This document shows positions 4,683 to 45,982 of a stretch of DNA of 48,489 bases, piece by piece; position 1 is the first letter of the stretch, and the number at the start of each line of letters is the position of its first letter. This stretch comes from Anaerolineae bacterium (lineage in GTDB: Bacteria; Chloroflexota; Anaerolineae; J036; Brachytrichaceae). A model generated the notes under the pieces. The model made no database searches and had not been told where the DNA came from. It saw only the letters and a list, made by a program, of their open reading frames with translations. The stretch is taken from assembly GCA_018500105.2 (NCBI GenBank), contig JAHBAL020000227.1:1-48489 (forward strand). The letters are read 5' to 3'. The translations under genes were made by a program, and so were the position numbers.

Positions 4683-5711
4683 ATGTTCATCATCATCGGA
4701 GCGGGGGCGATTGGCGGGACCATTGGGGCGTATATGCTGCGCGGCGGCGAGGAGGTGCTGTTTGTCGAGCAAGATCAGGCCCATGTCGCGGCCATCAACC
4801 AAAACGGGCTGAGCATCAACGGCTACGCCGAAAACTTCACCGTGCCTGCCCGCGCCATTACGCCCGACCAATTGCCTACCGCATTTGCACCAGCCTCGCT
4901 ACGGCGCGTCATTTTGGCAACCAAAGCCCAAGCTACCCACAGCGCCACCGAGATGATTCGGCCTTATCTCGCGCCCGATGGCTATATTCTTTCGGCCCAA
5001 AACGGACTAAACGAGTTAAGCATACAAGCGTTGGTCGGCGCACAGCGCACCATCGGCTGCTTCGTCAATTTCTCGGCAGATTACCTCGAACCCGGCCTCA
5101 TTCATTTTGGCGGGCCGGGCGCGTTTTATATCGGCGAATTGGATGGTCGCCAAACCGACCGCCTGCGCGAGCTGCGCACGGCGTTGGCGCATTGGGGCGG
5201 CGGCCCGGTGCACATCACCGACAATATTTGGGGCTATTTGTGGGGCAAATTGGGTTATGGCGCAATTTTATTCGCCACCGCTCTGAGCAATTTGAGCATG
5301 GCTGACGCAATTGACCAATATCGCAAGCCGTTGGTGGCCTTGGCGCGTGAAGTCATTGCCGTTGCCGATGCCGAAGGCGTGACCTCTATCGGTTTCGACG
5401 GCTATGACCCAAATCTCTATCGTCGCACCGGCGATGTGAATGATCCCGACTTAGCGGCCTCGCTCGATTATTTGGTGTCGCTACGTCGCCGCGATAAAAA
5501 GACGCATAGCGGCATCTGGCGCGATCTGGCAGTGCGCAAACGCAAAACCGAACTCGACCCACAAATGACGCTCATCGCTGAACGCGGGCGCATTCACGGT
5601 GTTCCCACTCCTCGCCTTGATCGCCTCATCGCCATGCTGCGCCAAATCGAAGCCGGAATCCGCCCGCTAGACACGGCGAATCTTGAGGAATGGGTGGTGA
5701 GTAACGAGTAA
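4683..5711 (+). CDS. ketopantoate reductase (ApbA/PanE) family NADPH-dependent oxidoreductase
   Basis: Cytoplasmic 2-hydroxyacid-type reductase of the 2-dehydropantoate 2-reductase family. The N-terminal Rossmann motif is GAGAIGG at residues 6-12. The C-terminal helical half contains NIWGYLWGKLGYGAIL, where the Lys matches the catalytic Lys of PanE. The length of 342 aa is a little above the 300 aa of classical PanE, and no other pantothenate gene is nearby, so it may act on another 2-oxo acid. The last codons are odd: the end of the protein (VVSNE) and the TAA stop fall within the first copies of the GAGTAAC array that follows. The C-terminus has therefore been set or reset by the repeat. 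Confidence 0.85.
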   Translation: MFIIIGAGAIGGTIGAYMLRGGEEVLFVEQDQAHVAAINQNGLSINGYAENFTVPARAITPDQLPTAFAPASLRRVILATKAQATHSATEMIRPYLAPDGYILSAQNGLNELSIQALVGAQRTIGCFVNFSADYLEPGLIHFGGPGAFYIGELDGRQTDRLRELRTALAHWGGGPVHITDNIWGYLWGKLGYGAILFATALSNLSMADAIDQYRKPLVALAREVIAVADAEGVTSIGFDGYDPNLYRRTGDVNDPDLAASLDYLVSLRRRDKKTHSGIWRDLAVRKRKTELDPQMTLIAERGRIHGVPTPRLDRLIAMLRQIEAGIRPLDTANLEEWVVSNE

Positions 5712-5895
5712 CGAGTAACGAGTAACAAGTAACAAGTAACAAGTAACGAGTAACGAGTAACGAGTAACGAGTAACGAGTAACGAGTAACGAGTAACGAGT
5801 AACGAGTAACGAGTAACGAGTAAAACAAGTAACGAGTAAAACAAGTAACGAGTAAAACAAGTAACGAGTAAAACAAGTAACGAGTAACGAGTAAG
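5699..5895. repeat. GAGTAAC heptamer tandem array (about 197 bp)
   Basis: About seventeen consecutive GAGTAAC/AAGTAAC units are followed by four 16-bp units GAGTAAAACAAGTAAC and two more heptamers. It overlaps the stop of the ketopantoate-reductase-family gene. All ORFs of the type LLVTRYSLLVTRYS on the minus strand here are translations of the array. Confidence 0.97.
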
Positions 5896-7450: not shown

Positions 7451-7661
7451 AGATACGCCTTTTATATGCACTCAGTATAGCCGCAAATGAAGGTGCGAAA
7501 AGGGGAAAATAACGGCGCAGAGCAGCCTTTTTCGCATAAGGCATAGTGTTTTTGCAAGCGCAATGGCGGGTTTGTACCAATCGCTGACTGTTACGTTGAC
7601 ATAGCTGTGCGCTCACGGGTCGAGGCCAAATATCGCGCTTTGCATCGTGGGTTGGTGCATA

Positions 7662-7695
7662 GTGACCCCTACTATGAATTTATAGTAGGGGTCAC
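7662..7695. terminator. 14-bp-stem hairpin in the pheA/ORF gap
   Basis: GTGACCCCTACTAT and ATAGTAGGGGTCAC flank a 6-nt loop. It lies between the divergent pheA and the plus-strand ORF at 7769. No clear T tract follows, so it is a hairpin of unknown role. The rest of the 7451-7768 gap shows only AT-rich promoter-like DNA and AAAGGAG just before the ORF at 7769. Confidence 0.6.
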
Positions 7696-7768
7696 CTTGT
7701 GATGATATGTTGACTTTGCTAAAACGTGATTGAATTCTATTCTAAGAATTTACACAAAGGAGACTTAA

Positions 7769-8695
7769 ATGAAAAAGTTATTAGTTGGTATCGTTAGTGG
7801 GTTACTCATCGTGGGGGGAGGGTTATGGCTTATTAACCGACAAAATATTTCCACTATCCCCTTAATCCCACTCAGTGATGTTCGTATCAATGAACAACTC
7901 TCCAATCCTGGAAAAGATGACGAAATGATTGCAAAAACCATAGAGAACAGGCTCAAAGAGATGGGATTGGTATATAAGGGGATTAGAACAAAAATTCAAA
8001 CAGATCCATTAATTACCTATACTTGTTGGATTATTAAACTAAGAATGCCTGTTAAAAATGCTGAAAATGAACTACAAGTTACATGGGATAGGATACTTGC
8101 TGGACACGCAATCGTTAATTTACGACGCGAGGGTATATCCATTCCTTGCTGGGGCTTTGATGCCGTTGATGACGCAGACAAATCATTGAACTATATAGGC
8201 TATGGATATGAAAACTTATCGATCATTCGACCCAGAGTAATCACCCCGACACTAGACTTGAGCCCCGGCATCGTAAAACAACAACTTAAAGACACGTTAA
8301 CCCTTGCATTAATGGGGCGCGAGGTGATGGATATCAAAGTGCGCGAATTGAATCCGACCCGCGCAGAGGGCAAGGTGGTTGAAGTGACAGTGCTATCTTC
8401 TCGCGAAGATGTGCTTAGCGGAAAACACTATAAAGCCATAATCGGTTTTACAGATGGAATTTTGAAATTGAACGCTTATAACAAGCTAGATATTGCAATT
8501 GGCAGGTTGATTTTTAAAGATGCGCAAGGCGCTATCCTCTATCAATATCTCCCCAATTTTGATCAAAATCAATTAAATACTTCACAAAGTCCAATCGAAG
8601 GAGCAATTACTCAGCAATCAAATACGAGTAGATTATCCATCCCATCGCTCAATTCGCCTTTGCCATTGCCGACATCCCCAATAAAACGACCATGA
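7769..8695 (+). CDS. hypothetical membrane-anchored protein
   Basis: I do not recognise a family. It is 308 aa with a clear ribosome-binding site (AAAGGAGAC, 8 nt before ATG). The N-terminus MKKLLVGIVSGLLIVGGGLWLI is a single TM anchor or uncleaved signal. The rest is extracytoplasmic, of mixed alpha/beta character. The C-terminus is Ser/Pro/Asn-rich and looks disordered. Codon use and base composition are AT-richer than pheA and the caspase gene on either side, suggesting horizontal gain. It is followed after 50 bp by a second small ORF on the same strand. Confidence 0.65.
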   Translation: MKKLLVGIVSGLLIVGGGLWLINRQNISTIPLIPLSDVRINEQLSNPGKDDEMIAKTIENRLKEMGLVYKGIRTKIQTDPLITYTCWIIKLRMPVKNAENELQVTWDRILAGHAIVNLRREGISIPCWGFDAVDDADKSLNYIGYGYENLSIIRPRVITPTLDLSPGIVKQQLKDTLTLALMGREVMDIKVRELNPTRAEGKVVEVTVLSSREDVLSGKHYKAIIGFTDGILKLNAYNKLDIAIGRLIFKDAQGAILYQYLPNFDQNQLNTSQSPIEGAITQQSNTSRLSIPSLNSPLPLPTSPIKRP

Positions 8696-8745
8696 TATTC
8701 CCTTTATTCGTTTAATGCCAGAAATCAGAAAATAGGAGTTGAAAT

Positions 8746-8928
8746 ATGAGAAATTTAATCACGGTCATTGGGGGCATATTTTCTTTTGGGTTCGTCCCCA
8801 TTCGCTTGTCAGCACAGGTGCCAATGGAGAGGGCGCATATTCAGAAGATGCAACGGGATCTGGGGATAGGCTATATGCTTATGAAGGCATTCCTAATTAA
8901 AATTAAGGAAACCAGACTTATGGTGTAA
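8746..8928 (+). CDS. small hypothetical protein, possibly a truncated remnant
   Basis: Sixty aa with a good AGGAG ribosome-binding site 7 nt before the ATG. The first 24 residues resemble a signal peptide ending in an AQVP-type cleavage region. The remainder is basic and short. It could be a true small secreted protein, or the 5' remnant of a longer gene truncated downstream. It shares strand and low GC with the ORF before it and ends just before a strong hairpin. No family recognised. Confidence 0.4.
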   Translation: MRNLITVIGGIFSFGFVPIRLSAQVPMERAHIQKMQRDLGIGYMLMKAFLIKIKETRLMV

Positions 8929-8932
8929 CAAA

Positions 8933-9529: not shown

Positions 9530-9785
9530 GTTTACTCGTTACTCCTTAACTCTCGTGATGTATTGCGTTAACACATACATCAACCACCTTTTAAAAATAA
9601 GCGATGTATTTTAGCATAGATTCAGTTGCCACAACGAAATTTTAAGCCAGTTGTTGCATTGCCGCGACGACGCTATTCTTTCGAAAAGAGATAGCCAAAC
9701 GAAAGACCCACGCTTTTTTAGATACAATTTAACTAGAACACTGACATTTCAACCACAACGGTAAACCGTTATCCAGCGATTTCTT

Positions 9786-10859
9786 ATGACAAAAAAATTT
9801 ACCAACGGATACGCCCTGTTAATTTCGGTAGACGAAAATAGTGTGCCAAACTGGGCCTTGCCCGACGTGCTGAAAGATGTGAATGCGCTGCGTGATGTGC
9901 TCATTCACCCGCAACGGTGTGGGTATGACCCGAAAAAGGTGCGCGTGATTGCTGGTGCAAAGGCGACACGGCAAGGCATTTTCGATGGCCTAGCATGGCT
10001 GGCAAACAACTTGGCTGCCGACACAAGCGGTAACGCGACCGCGCTGGTCTATTACACCGGTCACGGTTGGCGTGATCCAAATCGCAATCCCCCCGAATTT
10101 TATTTCATCCCCTACGACGTAAAACCGACCAGTGTCGCGGCACGGGCGCTGGCAGCCCGCGATTTTGCCGCCGAAGTGGCAGCATTGCAGCCAAAACGTT
10201 TGTTTGTGGTGCTCGATTGCTGCCATGCAGCCGGGGCCGATGTCAAAGACTTGACCGCAATTGGCAACGCCATCAGCAGCGCCATGCCAGTGCAGGTGGT
10301 GTTGGCAAATGAGGCCGAGGCGACGGCTGACATTACGCCGACGGGTGGCAAAGACTTGAGCGAATTGGCGTTGGGAGCGGGGCGGGCCATTCTTAGCTCG
10401 TCGCAGGCAGCAGAAAAGTCATGGCTGCGCAAAGATGGCAGCATGAGCGTCTTTACCTATTACCTGATTGAGGCACTGACCGGCCACGCGCAGCCAGCCG
10501 GTGGCGCAAACGAAGTGCTGGTGTCAGATGTCATGAGCCATGTTTACCGTAATGTGCCAAAATTGGTGCAGGCCGAACGTAATCAGCCACAGCACCCCGA
10601 CTATCAGGTGAGTGGCAATTTTCCGGTGGCGTTGCTGTTGGGCGGCAAAGGTTTGGCGGCGGGGCAAGCCGCGCCTGACCCGTTGCAATCGCCTAAACCC
10701 AGTGCCCGCGCCATCAAAATTACAGTTGGCGATGGTGTGGCGATTGTTGGCGATAATAATTTGGCAGCCGGCGCGGGTGGGGTGGTGGTGGGCGGTAGCG
10801 TTGGCGGCAGCATCACAACGGCAGTGCAACCCAAGCCACACAAGCCGCGTTTGCGTTAA
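9786..10859 (+). CDS. caspase-like (peptidase C14 / metacaspase-type) protein with Gly-rich C-terminal tail
   Basis: Predicted cytoplasmic cysteine protease, 357 aa. The p20-type fold runs from NGYALLISVDEN to about residue 270. The catalytic His is in YYTGHGW (H93) and the catalytic Cys in LDCCHAAG (C146), so the dyad is intact. No other recruitment or sensor domain is fused upstream. After a short linker the last 50 residues form a Gly/Val/Asn-rich stretch (KITVGDGVAIVGDNN, GGVVVGGSVGGSITT). I know this kind of tail from proteins near bacterial NTPase/protease conflict systems, although I cannot search for it here. It stands alone between ribosomal protein genes and a polyamine transporter. 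Whether it acts in stress response, regulated death or defence cannot be decided. Confidence 0.85.
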   Translation: MTKKFTNGYALLISVDENSVPNWALPDVLKDVNALRDVLIHPQRCGYDPKKVRVIAGAKATRQGIFDGLAWLANNLAADTSGNATALVYYTGHGWRDPNRNPPEFYFIPYDVKPTSVAARALAARDFAAEVAALQPKRLFVVLDCCHAAGADVKDLTAIGNAISSAMPVQVVLANEAEATADITPTGGKDLSELALGAGRAILSSSQAAEKSWLRKDGSMSVFTYYLIEALTGHAQPAGGANEVLVSDVMSHVYRNVPKLVQAERNQPQHPDYQVSGNFPVALLLGGKGLAAGQAAPDPLQSPKPSARAIKITVGDGVAIVGDNNLAAGAGGVVVGGSVGGSITTAVQPKPHKPRLR

Positions 10860-10936
10860 ACCGCAACTTTGCACTCGCATAAGCATCAATAAAACGTATA
10901 TAATCGAGTGATCTTTTAATCTCTATCTCATACGAT

Positions 10937-14027: not shown

Positions 14028-14237
14028 GTTGCAGGTGGCAGGTTGCAAAGTTGTAAAGTTGCAGAGTTGCAGAGTTGCAGGTTGAAAGTGATCACCTGTC
14101 ACCTGCCACCTGCCACCTGCAACTCTGCTACCTGCCACCTGCCACCTGCAACTCTGCTACCTGCCACCTGCAACTCTGCTACCTGCCACCTGCAACTCTG
14201 CTACCTGCCACCTGCAACCTACAACTCTGCCACTTTG
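14028..14237. repeat. inverted array of GTTGCAG/GTGGCAG heptamers between convergent genes
   Basis: Left side: AGTTGCAGGTGGCAGGTTGC and more GTTGCAG copies. Right side: the complements CACCTGCCACCTGCAACTCTG repeated about six times. The period is 7 bp. The array contains the TAG stop of the minus-strand M20 gene and abuts the GNAT stop. ORFs such as those reading CHLPPATCNSATC are array translations. Confidence 0.95.
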
Positions 14238-15565: not shown

Positions 15566-15776
15566 CAACTGGCTGACTGGCTGACTGGTTGGTTGGTTGA
15601 TTAGTTGATTGGTTGACTGGTTGATTGGTTGACTGGTTGACTGGCGGTTCAACCAATTAATCAACTAATTAACCAACTAATCAACTAATCAACCAACTAA
15701 TCAACCAACTAATCAACTAATCAACTAATCAACCAACTAATCAACTAATCAACTAATCAACCAACCAATCAACCAG
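15566..15776. repeat. inverted array of GGTTGAT/GGTTGAC heptamers
   Basis: Left: CTGACTGGTTGGTTGGTTGA and many GGTTGATT copies. Right: CAACTAATCAACCAACTAATC repeated for about 120 bp. The centre is near 15650 (GGCGGTTCAACCAATTAATC). It fills the gap between gabT and the M20 gene, and gabT's TGA is its first word. Confidence 0.95.
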
Positions 15777-18111: not shown

Positions 18112-19352
18112 GCCGCGCTGTCGCCCCATGTCTCAATCCGGTGCTTGAGGTCGGCCATAAATGCGTCGGCATTTGCGCCATCTAACACGCGATGGTCGAA
18201 GGTGAAGCTGAGATAGGCGCAGGGGCGAATGGCGATGACATCGCCGTGTGCGCTGCTCAACACCTTGACTCGTTTCTCGACAGCGCCCACGCCCAAAATG
18301 CCCGTTTGCCCTTGATTTAGCACTGGTGTGCCAAACAAACTGCCAGATGCGCCGTGATTGCTGATGCTAAAGGTGCCGCCTTGCAGGTCGTTTGCTTGCA
18401 ATTGCTTATTGCGGGCGCGTTGGGCCAGCGTTTGGATTTGCCGCGCCAACCCTTTCAGGTTTAGCTCGTCGGCGTTCTGAATGACCGGAACCATTAGCCC
18501 ATCTTGCAACGCCACCGCGATGCCGAGATTAATCTCGCTTTTGAGCAATAGCCCCTCGTCGCGCCATTCGCTATTCACCATGCGATGCCGCCGCAACGTA
18601 TGCGCGGTGGCGCTGGCAATGTAGGCCAGCCACGTCAAATTCACCTCGTCTTTGGCGTAAATCGCCTTATTCGCCTCGCGGTGCTTTGCTACTGCCGACA
18701 AATCCACCTCAAATACCGTCGTTACTTGGGCGCTGTGATGCAGGCTGCGCATCATGTGCTCGGCAATCCGCATCCGCATCGGGCTGTGCGGGGTGGGGAG
18801 TTGCGCTAAGTGCTTGGCGCTTGGCTCCTGAATCTCCGCTCTTGGCTCTTGGTTCTTGGCGCTTGGCTCCTGAATCTCCCTTCTTGGCTCTTGGTTCTTG
18901 GTTCTTGACTCTTCTAAATGGGCTAACACATCATGCTTCGTGATGCGGCCATTTTCGCCTGTGCCGATGATGCGGTTGGGGTCGAGCTGATGCTCGGCCA
19001 ACATGCGATTGACGACCGGGCTGAGGCGACCAGCGTAGGGCGTTTCGTTTGGCGTGGCGGTGGCAAGCATGGCGGGCGCAGGTGTGGTTTGGGGGGATTG
19101 AGGCACGATAGCAGCCGCAGCTTCATCAAGCGCCGCCAACACATCGCCCACCCGCACTTTTTTGCCAATTTCGGCTACGATCTTGCCCAATTTGCCGGCG
19201 CGATCCGCCGCAATTTCGAGGGTAATCTTGTCGGTTTCGACCTCGGCAATTGCCTCATTCACCGCCACTTGATCACCAATTTGTTTAATCCACCGAATCA
19301 CGGTGACTTCTTGAATGCCATCGCCCAGCGGTGGCAAAGTAAAGTTTGACAT
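18108..19352 (-). CDS. 2-oxoacid dehydrogenase E2, dihydrolipoyl acyltransferase (branched-chain/pyruvate type)
   Basis: Core subunit of a 2-oxoacid dehydrogenase complex, 414 aa. An N-terminal lipoyl domain carries the lipoyl Lys in VETDKITLE (about residue 42). A peripheral subunit-binding domain follows (LSPVVNRMLAEHQLDPNRIIG, about 107-143). The catalytic domain has the active-site FDHRVLDGANA near the C-terminus. The linker between the last two domains (about residues 145-183) is unusual: it reads RTKNQEPRREIQEPSAKNQE, a translation of the same repeat word found in the intergenic array at 2.6 kb. E1 lies upstream in the same unit. Whether the substrate is pyruvate or a branched-chain oxoacid is not certain; the Lrp neighbour favours branched-chain. 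Confidence 0.92.
   Translation of the reverse strand: MSNFTLPPLGDGIQEVTVIRWIKQIGDQVAVNEAIAEVETDKITLEIAADRAGKLGKIVAEIGKKVRVGDVLAALDEAAAAIVPQSPQTTPAPAMLATATPNETPYAGRLSPVVNRMLAEHQLDPNRIIGTGENGRITKHDVLAHLEESRTKNQEPRREIQEPSAKNQEPRAEIQEPSAKHLAQLPTPHSPMRMRIAEHMMRSLHHSAQVTTVFEVDLSAVAKHREANKAIYAKDEVNLTWLAYIASATAHTLRRHRMVNSEWRDEGLLLKSEINLGIAVALQDGLMVPVIQNADELNLKGLARQIQTLAQRARNKQLQANDLQGGTFSISNHGASGSLFGTPVLNQGQTGILGVGAVEKRVKVLSSAHGDVIAIRPCAYLSFTFDHRVLDGANADAFMADLKHRIETWGDSAA
18803..18918. repeat. AGAACCA/AGAGCCA-type heptamer repeat inside the E2 coding region
   Basis: On the plus strand CTTGGCTCTTGGTTCTTGG occurs in several copies with CTCCTGAATCTCC spacers. The words match the intergenic array at 2624-2742. 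The insert keeps the E2 frame open and encodes only the flexible linker between the subunit-binding and catalytic domains. Confidence 0.9.
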
Positions 19353-44593: not shown

Positions 44594-45982
44594 GTACATC
44601 TCCGCAGAAATCTCTCCCCCTAGCAACTCGGATTATTTAGTCAATGGTCGCCCCTTGTAAGTCCACTTGAACGGCTTTGCCATGGTGCGATTAAAGAAAT
44701 CGATAAAATCCAAAATACGCTGCTTCAGATCTGCTGTTGAGCAGAAACTTGCGCGTTTCAGCAACCGCCGCACCAAAATACTAAACCATATCTCGATTTG
44801 ATTCAACCATGAACTATGTTTCGGCGTATATACAAACCGTATCCGATGGGCAATATCTTCAAGAAATGCCATCCGTGTTGCCATCGATTTTAGAACGCCG
44901 CTTTTGCCCTTCTCACCCAAATCTTCGCTGATGCCACACAAACGCGCCACCAGCCTCACCAGCGTTTCTGACATATGCGTGTTAAGTTGATCCATTACAA
45001 ATATCCACTGCATCAGCGGATTTGGATTGCTTTCGATTGTCCTTGCCACATGATCTGCAAAATCCTGCTCGGTTCGTCGCTCTCCCACCGTTGGCGACAC
45101 CACTGCTCCGCTTGCCACATCAAAGTTTGCGATCAATGCTTGGGTTCCATGTCACTCATACTCAAATTCGCGGCATTCAACCTTCCCTACACCCATTGGT
45201 AGATTCTCCGCGATCCGCTCCAATGCCTGTATCCCAGTCATCTCATCCACACTCAGGGTGCATCCCCCTTTCGTGGCTACCTCAGCCGCTTGCTCATAGA
45301 CATCACATACTTTTTTGACACGTGCGTCAAACTCAGCGGCAGCTTCTTCGTCCTCAGGTCGGCTGTTTAGCCAATAGCGGCTTAAATGTGGTTTGATCTG
45401 TGCCTGATTTTAAAAATCGCCCAACACTGCGGTCTGAAATACTCTCTACAATCTTACCTTTGATCGCTTCGTTTGCTAATATCTGCGGTGTCCAATGGCT
45501 AATTGGGTACCCGCTGTCTTGTGGACATTCACACGCAAGTGCAATTATTTTTACAATGGTTTCTGCATCAAATTTTGCGGGTGCACCGCTTCGCTCTGCG
45601 TCTGAAAATACTTTTACCATTTCCGACTCTAATTCTTCCAGGTTGCTTAGCCCAGTCTTTTTATCGATCTGCTGTTCAATTGTGTTTAATTGTGCTTGGG
45701 CGGCAAGCCATCGTTTTCGCCAGTGGCGCACTTTATCGCGGCTTAATCCGCAATTTCGGCGCATCTGTCCATTGCTTATGCCGTTCACACTCAACAAAAT
45801 GATTTTTGCACGCTCAACTAAGCCAGCGGGTAACACGCGTGATTTTGTCATTTCTTCAAGTATTTGTTTTTGATTTGCGCTTGCAGGCATGGGTTGATGG
45901 GCAAGATGTTGTATCATTTCCCATCATTATCACGCCTTCTTTGTCACCCTATGCAGGGTGTGGGTTTTCTGCGGAGTTGTAC
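44594..45982 (-). mobile_element. IS630-family insertion sequence, degenerate
   Basis: 1389 bp bounded by 17-bp terminal inverted repeats: GTACATCTCCGCAGAAA on the left and the complement GTACAACTCCGCAGAAA on the right, one mismatch. A TA dinucleotide lies on each side (44592-44593, 45983-45984), the target duplication expected of IS630/Tc1 elements. The transposase on the minus strand is broken by a frameshift and a stop. It lies between the GT2 and a membrane-protein gene in the same operon-like run. Confidence 0.9.
44633..45917 (-). pseudogene. IS630 transposase, inactivated by a frameshift and a nonsense codon
   Basis: The N-terminal helix-turn-helix part starts at ATG 45917 and runs to a frameshift at a TTTTTAAAA tract near 45405-45415; removing one A restores the reading GRFLNQAQIKPHLSRYWLNS. 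The frame then reads through RPEDEEAAAEFDARVKKVCD and SVDEMTGIQALERIA (with the first catalytic Asp) until EYE-stop-HGTQAL near 45150, where a TGA replaces a likely CGA. The last part has [10 protein letters not shown] and [13 protein letters not shown], the second Asp and Glu. Two lesions make a silent relic. A programmed frameshift was considered, but the later stop rules out a functional product. Confidence 0.9.

What the first reader, a model, noticed from the sequence alone, without database searches (positions are those of the whole stretch)
9786..10859. Stand-alone caspase-like protease with a GDN-rich tail
The His-Cys dyad is intact (YYTGHGW, LDCCHAAG). The tail (VGDGVAIVGDNN, GGSVGGSITT) resembles low-complexity segments seen in Chloroflexota proteins of NTPase/TPR/CHAT conflict systems. 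No sensor is fused or adjacent, so activation would have to come in trans.
Basis: partly seen in the sequence, partly recalled or inferred. Interest (0 to 1): 0.52.

Follow-up and report, generated by a model that had tools for sequence, protein, structure and literature searches.

The report
Bacterial caspase tagged for a remote sensor
This bacterial gene makes a caspase-type protease whose glycine-rich tail matches the front end of one immune-sensor-like protein encoded elsewhere in the same genome, which suggests that the sensor switches the protease on through matching tails, as inflammasomes do in animals.

Summary
The ORF at 9786-10859 is a real 357-aa Peptidase_C14 protein with an invariant His93/Cys146 dyad. 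Its tail is residues 310-345. The tail is not unique. In the whole genome one other protein carries it: a 1002-aa NACHT NTPase on contig C37, with the motif at its N-terminus, directly before the NTPase. A profile built only from other species' caspase tails recovers the same two proteins as top hits. In relatives the same caspase and tail are fused to a NACHT NTPase in one polypeptide (L075, L076, L086), or stand near a separate motif-bearing NACHT/STAND gene (L108, L095, L090, L198). The motif also links small effectors and a CHAT protease to neighbouring NACHT sensors. The gene is accessory: it is absent from the closest sister genome, lies at a synteny breakpoint, and is outside the clade of caspases typical of its family. 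Best reading: an effector protease recruited in trans by an NLR-like sensor through a homotypic, probably beta-rich (amyloid-like) motif. This follows the known logic of bacterial amyloid signalling (BASS) and effector-associated domains (EADs), but uses a caspase and unlinked genes. Partnership, assembly and protease activity are untested. New variant of a known kind.

The parts
9786..10859 (+). 357-aa caspase-like protease (Peptidase_C14) with a C-terminal motif tail
9786..10652 (+). Caspase domain, residues 1-289
   Evidence: Pfam match residues 8-273; confident AlphaFold core, most 10-residue blocks pLDDT 82-97 apart from loops near 148-200; Foldseek to metacaspases and paracaspases
10062..10064 (+). 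Catalytic His93 (GHG)
   Evidence: Invariant in 14 homologs
10221..10223 (+). Catalytic Cys146 (D-C-C-H; second Cys invariant, some homologs have DSCH)
   Evidence: Invariant in 14 homologs
10653..10712 (+). Variable Pro/Ala linker, residues 290-309
   Evidence: Poorly aligned region; pLDDT about 50-55
10713..10820 (+). Tail motif, residues 310-345: IKITVGDGVAIVGDNNLAAGAGGVVVGGSVGGSITT, shared with the N-terminus of the C37 NACHT NTPase
   Evidence: two short strands at residues 326-329 and 332-335
10821..10856 (+). Basic C-terminal end AVQPKPHKPRLR, residues 346-357
   Evidence: Read from the sequence; pLDDT below 50 for 348-357
9623..10895 (.). Stretch lying between two blocks that are unlinked in sister genome G172; holds only the caspase gene
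   Evidence: Left homology ends at 9622; right homology begins at 10896 on a different contig

Best explanation
The gene encodes an effector protease of an NLR-like conflict (programmed cell death or defence) system whose sensor is encoded elsewhere. The likely sensor is the 1002-aa NACHT NTPase at G000:C37:8023-11031, which carries the same motif at residues 34-66, just before its NTPase domain, and whose long C-terminal part gives only a sub-threshold HEAT-repeat match. Proposed mechanism: a trigger makes the NACHT protein oligomerise; its N-terminal motifs then nucleate a beta-rich homotypic assembly that captures the caspase tails; crowding of the protease domains activates the His93/Cys146 enzyme, which cleaves cellular proteins. 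Shown here: the catalytic residues, the shared motif, its effector C-terminal and sensor N-terminal placement, natural caspase-motif-NACHT fusions, nearby caspase/NACHT pairs in relatives, and the accessory status of the gene. Inferred: physical partnership of these two proteins, oligomerisation, beta or amyloid-like structure, proximity activation, cell death or phage defence as the outcome.
For: Own genome: a search with the tail alone returns itself and only C37:8122-8223, E 0.08, 44% over 34 aa. A profile from 8 foreign caspase tails (window left out) ranks the window caspase first and the C37 protein second of the whole genome, E 0.018 and 0.127, then short poor matches. Score 75 with 0/5000 shuffles; next own-genome frame 42. 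The hit is a NACHT protein with the motif at residues 34-66 of 1002. C37 belongs to this genome: its argC-type gene is 82% identical to sister G172 and tetranucleotide correlation with the window is 0.957. Fusions in one ORF: L075 C14+NACHT; L076 C14+NACHT+FGE; L086 C14+NACHT; L090 1236-aa C14+NACHT+FGE. Separate pairs: L108 stand-alone caspase followed on the same strand by a STAND/FGE protein with the motif; L095; L090 divergent pair; L198 caspase and NACHT-FGE sharing GAIAQGIGNTV. Motif copies within a locus resemble each other more than copies from different loci, 84.8 against 65.4, 0/5000 permutations.
Against: The two genes are unlinked here, unlike most BASS or EAD pairs. Direct E-values in the genome are weak for such a short Gly-rich stretch (0.08; 0.127). 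The window tail matches C37 well but not uniquely well: 7 of 39 other motif copies, among them two NACHT-class proteins from other genomes, score higher, so cognate specificity is not shown. The genome is a 574-contig draft, 92% complete, so a better partner could be missing. The C37 NACHT score is only just above the curated cut-off in the complete-protein scan (27.2 against 26.7). AlphaFold gives the tail low confidence (pLDDT 44-54). No activity or assembly is tested.
Confidence: 0.68

Rival explanations
1. The tail is a homotypic adaptor, but it works as an ordinary beta-roll or oligomeric bundle (YadA-head-like repeat) that brings caspase and NACHT together without amyloid templating.
For: The motif of two related small effectors gives weak Pfam YadA_head matches, 14.6 and 15.0 bits against a cut-off of 25. 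The spacing xGxGAIAQGxGxxAxGxGGVxVGG resembles a left-handed beta-roll repeat.
Against: The YadA scores are below threshold and E about 0.03-0.04. The 20-40 aa length and the effector C-terminal / NLR N-terminal placement are those described for amyloid signalling motifs (PMC8086366, PMC7889193).
Confidence: 0.35
2. The tail binds another, unseen partner (the missing 8% of the genome, or a divergent motif type such as the INTGGGA...GRD motifs on other NACHT proteins here), and the resemblance to C37 reflects shared motif chemistry only.
For: Several other NACHT proteins of this genome carry a different Gly-rich motif (C318; C354). Some foreign NACHT motifs match the tail better than C37 does.
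Against: C37 is the only second hit in the genome with two different queries, and the other own NACHT loci score 42 or less against the tail.
Confidence: 0.2
3. The tail is a functionless low-complexity extension, and the caspase is a free-standing enzyme with a housekeeping or stress role.
For: Low AlphaFold confidence for residues 301-357; no adjacent partner in the window.
Against: 29 of 88 homologs carry a strict Gly-rich beta-type tail and other tail types recur. Tails are fused between caspase and NACHT in several phyla. The gene is absent from the sister genome and lies outside the family-typical caspase clade.
Confidence: 0.08

Closest known systems
Bacterial amyloid signalling sequences (BASS1-10) linking NLRs to effectors (Dyrka et al. 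2020, described in PMC7889193, PMC8086366, PMC12261475)
   Same: Short motif of 20-40 aa at the C-terminus of an effector and the N-terminus of an NLR-like NTPase; CHAT and TIR effectors are known besides BELL.
   Different: Effector is a Peptidase_C14 caspase, genes are unlinked here, host is Chloroflexota (BASS reported mainly from actinobacteria and cyanobacteria). Whether the motif equals one of BASS1-10 could not be tested; no amyloid data.
Effector-associated domains (EAD1-12) of bacterial conflict systems (Kaur et al. 2020, PMC7159879; 2021, PMC8195603)
   Same: One copy of a small non-catalytic module on a core NTPase, another on an effector such as a caspase, sometimes encoded elsewhere in the genome.
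   Different: EADs are folded helical or alpha+beta domains; this is a 36-aa Gly/Val beta-type motif with no Pfam EAD match. The same genome runs a separate EAD7 network of 20 copies above cut-off.
Caspase-CARD/inflammasome and apoptosome
   Same: Protease recruited by homotypic contacts to an oligomerising NACHT or AP-ATPase sensor.
   Different: No Death-fold domain; the connector is a short motif. Works-like comparison only.
Bacterial NACHT (bNACHT) antiphage proteins and DGR-diversified NACHT-FGE sensors (PMC10907252)
   Same: NACHT NTPase as core; relatives of the partner end in an FGE/CLec sensor.
   Different: Effector is a separate protease joined by a motif; the C37 protein has no FGE domain; no phage data.

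Membership tests
Caspase family, Peptidase C14 (PF00656) | Profile match above curated cut-off | tested here: met
   50.6 bits against 21.4
Caspase family, Peptidase C14 (PF00656) | His-Cys catalytic dyad | tested here: met
   H93 and C146 invariant in 14 homologs
Caspase family, Peptidase C14 (PF00656) | Caspase-hemoglobinase fold | tested here: met
   Foldseek best matches metacaspase 9 (E 1.9e-9), GSU0716, MALT1, procaspase-1, all prob 1.00; global TM-scores are moderate, 0.42-0.47 by query length
Caspase family, Peptidase C14 (PF00656) | Proteolytic activity and P1 preference | not testable with these tools
   Needs protein
BASS-type amyloid signalling pair | Same 20-40 aa motif at effector C-terminus and NLR N-terminus in one genome | tested here: met
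   Residues 310-345 of the caspase and about 34-66 of the C37 NACHT protein
BASS-type amyloid signalling pair | Effector and NLR genes adjacent | tested here: not met
   Different contigs in this genome; met in relatives such as L188, L190 and the divergent pair in L090
BASS-type amyloid signalling pair | Motif matches a BASS1-10 profile | not testable with these tools
   Profiles not held; the defining paper is not in the library
BASS-type amyloid signalling pair | Forms amyloid or prion-like foci | not testable with these tools
   Experiment needed
RHIM / PP / BASS3 motif | Core G-hydrophobic-Q-hydrophobic-G | tested here: not met
   Window tail has AIVGDNN and VVVGGSV, no Q in the core (sequence); core defined in PMC7885112. 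Relatives L082/L086 carry AVQIGGDN
EAD system | Match to a curated EAD domain | tested here: not met
   Only PF00656 found in the window protein
EAD system | One module copy on a core NTPase and another on an effector | tested here: met
bNACHT antiphage system | NACHT domain in the sensor partner | tested here: met
   C37 protein 27.2-30.8 bits against 26.7
bNACHT antiphage system | Protection against phage | not testable with these tools
   Experiment needed; no PADLOC match for the C37 protein
YadA head beta-roll | PF05658 match above cut-off | tested here: not met
   Two related effectors reach only 14.6 and 15.0 bits against 25

The most novel reading that the evidence does not exclude
The tail belongs to an undescribed family of amyloid-type signalling motifs, and this is a bacterial caspase switched on by prion-like templating from a NACHT sensor encoded elsewhere in the genome: a private channel that runs beside the genome's EAD7 network.
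Probability: 0.3. Interest if true: 0.75.

Novelty: new variant of a known kind. Interest (0 to 1): 0.52.

Why it matters
It gives a stand-alone bacterial caspase a concrete candidate activator and a testable wiring rule: matching short motifs, not gene neighbourhood, decide which sensor drives which protease. If right, orphan caspases in other genomes could be matched to sensors by tail sequence, and caspases would join the effectors run by short beta motifs, a bacterial parallel to inflammasomes and necrosomes.

Tried and rejected
(1) Sensor fused to or next to the window gene: none; neighbours are ordinary and no second motif lies in the window. (2) Tail unique to this protein: rejected. 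(3) Housekeeping caspase: rejected. (4) C37 as contaminant: rejected. (5) Classical RHIM: core Q missing in the window tail. (6) Curated EAD in the window protein: none. (7) Solved homolog by sequence: none. (8) First pass over NACHT loci read minus-strand hits in the wrong frame; redone. (9) A simple composition filter for GDN-rich windows found only the window tail and missed the C37 motif; alignment scores and profiles found it. (10) The C37 NACHT protein has no ortholog in the other family genomes, so co-inheritance could not be traced.

Full report
WHAT IS THERE. The ORF 9786-10859 (+) encodes 357 aa. Pfam finds only Peptidase_C14, residues 8-273, E 2.6e-13. In 14 homologs His93 and Cys146 are invariant. 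An AlphaFold model built on 14 sequences has mean pLDDT 76.6 and pTM 0.76. Most of the core is at 82-97; loops near 148-197 and everything after residue 300 are low, with two short strands in the tail at 326-329 and 332-335. Foldseek places the fold among metacaspases, MALT1 and procaspase-1, best E 1.9e-9. No solved chain is recognisable by sequence. The tail, residues 310-345, is Gly/Val/Ile-rich: 10 G, 7 V, 4 I, 2 D, 2 N.

THE TAIL IS SHARED WITH ONE NACHT SENSOR. Searching the whole genome with the 36-aa tail gives itself and one other place, C37:8122-8223, E 0.08, 44% over 34 aa. That place is the N-terminus of a 1002-aa protein whose NACHT domain follows at residue 158: ADISVKSGAGVSGSDNTVAGQQGVAVRGNVGGDVITG. 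As an independent test I built a profile from eight tails of caspases of other species, leaving the window out. In the whole genome it ranks the window caspase first (E 0.018) and the C37 protein second (E 0.127), followed by short poor matches. Pairwise, tail and C37 N-terminus score 75; none of 5000 shuffles of either reaches this, and the next best of 214 own-genome frames, including the other NACHT loci, scores 42. The E-values alone are weak; the strength lies in two queries agreeing and in the hit falling at the effector-recruiting end of a NACHT protein.

C37 IS PART OF THIS GENOME. Its argC-type gene is 82% identical to that of the sister species G172 and far from other genera. Its tetranucleotide profile correlates 0.957 with the window, as high as window chunks among themselves.

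RELATIVES JOIN THE SAME PARTS. Of 396 genomes of the class, 78 have a homolog at E <= 1e-6; a wider scan gave 79 loci from Chloroflexota, Accumulibacter, Desulfobacterota, cyanobacteria and others. Several are single proteins with caspase, tail motif and NACHT domain: L075 Desulfobacterales, L076 Anaerolineae, L086 Accumulibacter, and a second protein in L090. L082 has caspase, the motif and a P-loop at the contig end. Others are stand-alone caspases with a separate motif-bearing NTPase near by: L108, where the next large frame downstream on the same strand, about 0.7 kb away, is a STAND/FGE protein (its NACHT score, 22.1 bits, is below the cut-off of 26.7, but the related NPHP3_N P-loop family passes); L095; and L090, a divergent pair. 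In L198 a caspase with GAIAQGIGNTVVG lies near a NACHT-FGE protein with GAIAQGIGNTVLG.

THE MOTIF IS A GENERAL CONNECTOR. The eight-tail profile hits 43 of 396 class genomes at E <= 0.01. In many loci a 110-250 aa protein ends with the motif and the next gene, of about 850-1000 aa, starts with it and continues into a P-loop NTPase (L188, L189, L190, L191, L193). Pfam confirms NACHT with a C-terminal FGE domain in several of the large proteins, and a CHAT protease between two motif-bearing NTPase-type proteins in L206. Copies in one locus resemble each other more than copies from different loci, mean 84.8 against 65.4, none of 5000 permutations as high. Gene duplication and shared base composition within a genome could add to this, so it supports but does not prove cognate specificity. 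The window tail itself is eighth-closest to C37 among 39 motif copies, so specificity of this pair remains open.

ACCESSORY GENE. In the sister genome G172, which has no detectable copy, homology from the left ends at 9622 and homology from the right starts at 10896 on another contig. The family's usual caspases, with helical C-terminal domains, form a separate supported clade; the window protein falls in a motif-rich group of 20 rows, 17 with a beta-type tail, that mixes Chloroflexota, Accumulibacter and Desulfobacterales. That group's support is mixed (91/99). Strict Gly-rich tails are found in 29 of 88 homologs, and the label changes at least 6 times on the tree, so tails are swapped as modules. 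The C37 NACHT protein is also private: no ortholog in the other 27 family genomes.

A SECOND CHANNEL IN THE SAME GENOME. The gene after the C37 NACHT protein (L010 11041-11904) has Gly-rich stretches and a C-terminal EAD7 (2e-16). Another caspase of this genome, on C276, has an N-terminal EAD7 and lies near an 894-aa frame with EAD7; the genome has 20 EAD7 copies above cut-off. So the genome wires most conflict proteins with EAD7 and, as far as seen, only this caspase with the beta-type tail. That the EAD7 protein bridges C37 to the C276 caspase is a guess.

MECHANISM AND LIMITS. By analogy with BASS pairs (PMC7889193, PMC8086366), EAD systems (PMC7159879, PMC8195603) and NACHT antiphage proteins (PMC10907252 and references there), I infer that an activated C37 oligomer presents its motifs, captures the caspase tails and activates the protease by proximity. 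The assembly may be amyloid-like; weak YadA-head matches (14.6 and 15.0 bits, cut-off 25) leave a conventional beta-roll open. BASS1-10 profiles are not held, so membership could not be tested. A limited literature search found no description of caspase C14 effectors using such a motif; most subscription papers, including the original BASS paper, are not in the library, so novelty is provisional.

Noticed in passing
7517-8929: Second stretch absent from sister genome G172, where about 150 bases stand instead; it holds the 308-aa ORF 7769-8695 of unknown function.
   Followed up: partly
G000:C37:11041-11904 (L010): Gene directly after the motif-bearing NACHT gene: 287 aa with Gly-rich beta-type stretches and a C-terminal EAD7, a possible adaptor between two wiring systems.
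   Followed up: partly
G000:C276 (L012, L007): Caspase with N-terminal EAD7 close to an 894-aa frame that also has EAD7: a local effector/sensor pair in the EAD7 channel.
   Followed up: partly
L026 (C318) and L023 (C354): Two other NACHT proteins of this genome carry a different Gly-rich motif (INTGGGAVIEGAV...GDFAGRD; GAVIGPQASISAGGDFVGRD) before the NTPase, perhaps a second motif class with its own effectors.
   Followed up: no
L090 1696-12829: Accumulibacter locus with a fused caspase-motif-NACHT-FGE protein, a separate NACHT-FGE protein with the motif, and a further caspase with the motif: all arrangements side by side.
   Followed up: partly
L098, L100, L102, L103, L106, L107, L109, L114: Cyanobacterial homologs end in a different short conserved tail (GKFITNINEAHGIHIGD-type).
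   Followed up: no
5699-5894, 14093-14233, 15649-15775, 18813-18913: Arrays of short tandem repeats, mostly units of 7 or multiples (also 8 and 20), between or overlapping gene ends.
   Followed up: no
44633-45917: Two minus-strand frames resembling the halves of an IS630-type transposase (by eye).
   Followed up: no
L010 4568-6652: 694-aa frame that looks like a ThyX thymidylate synthase interrupted by an intein-like insert (by eye).
   Followed up: no
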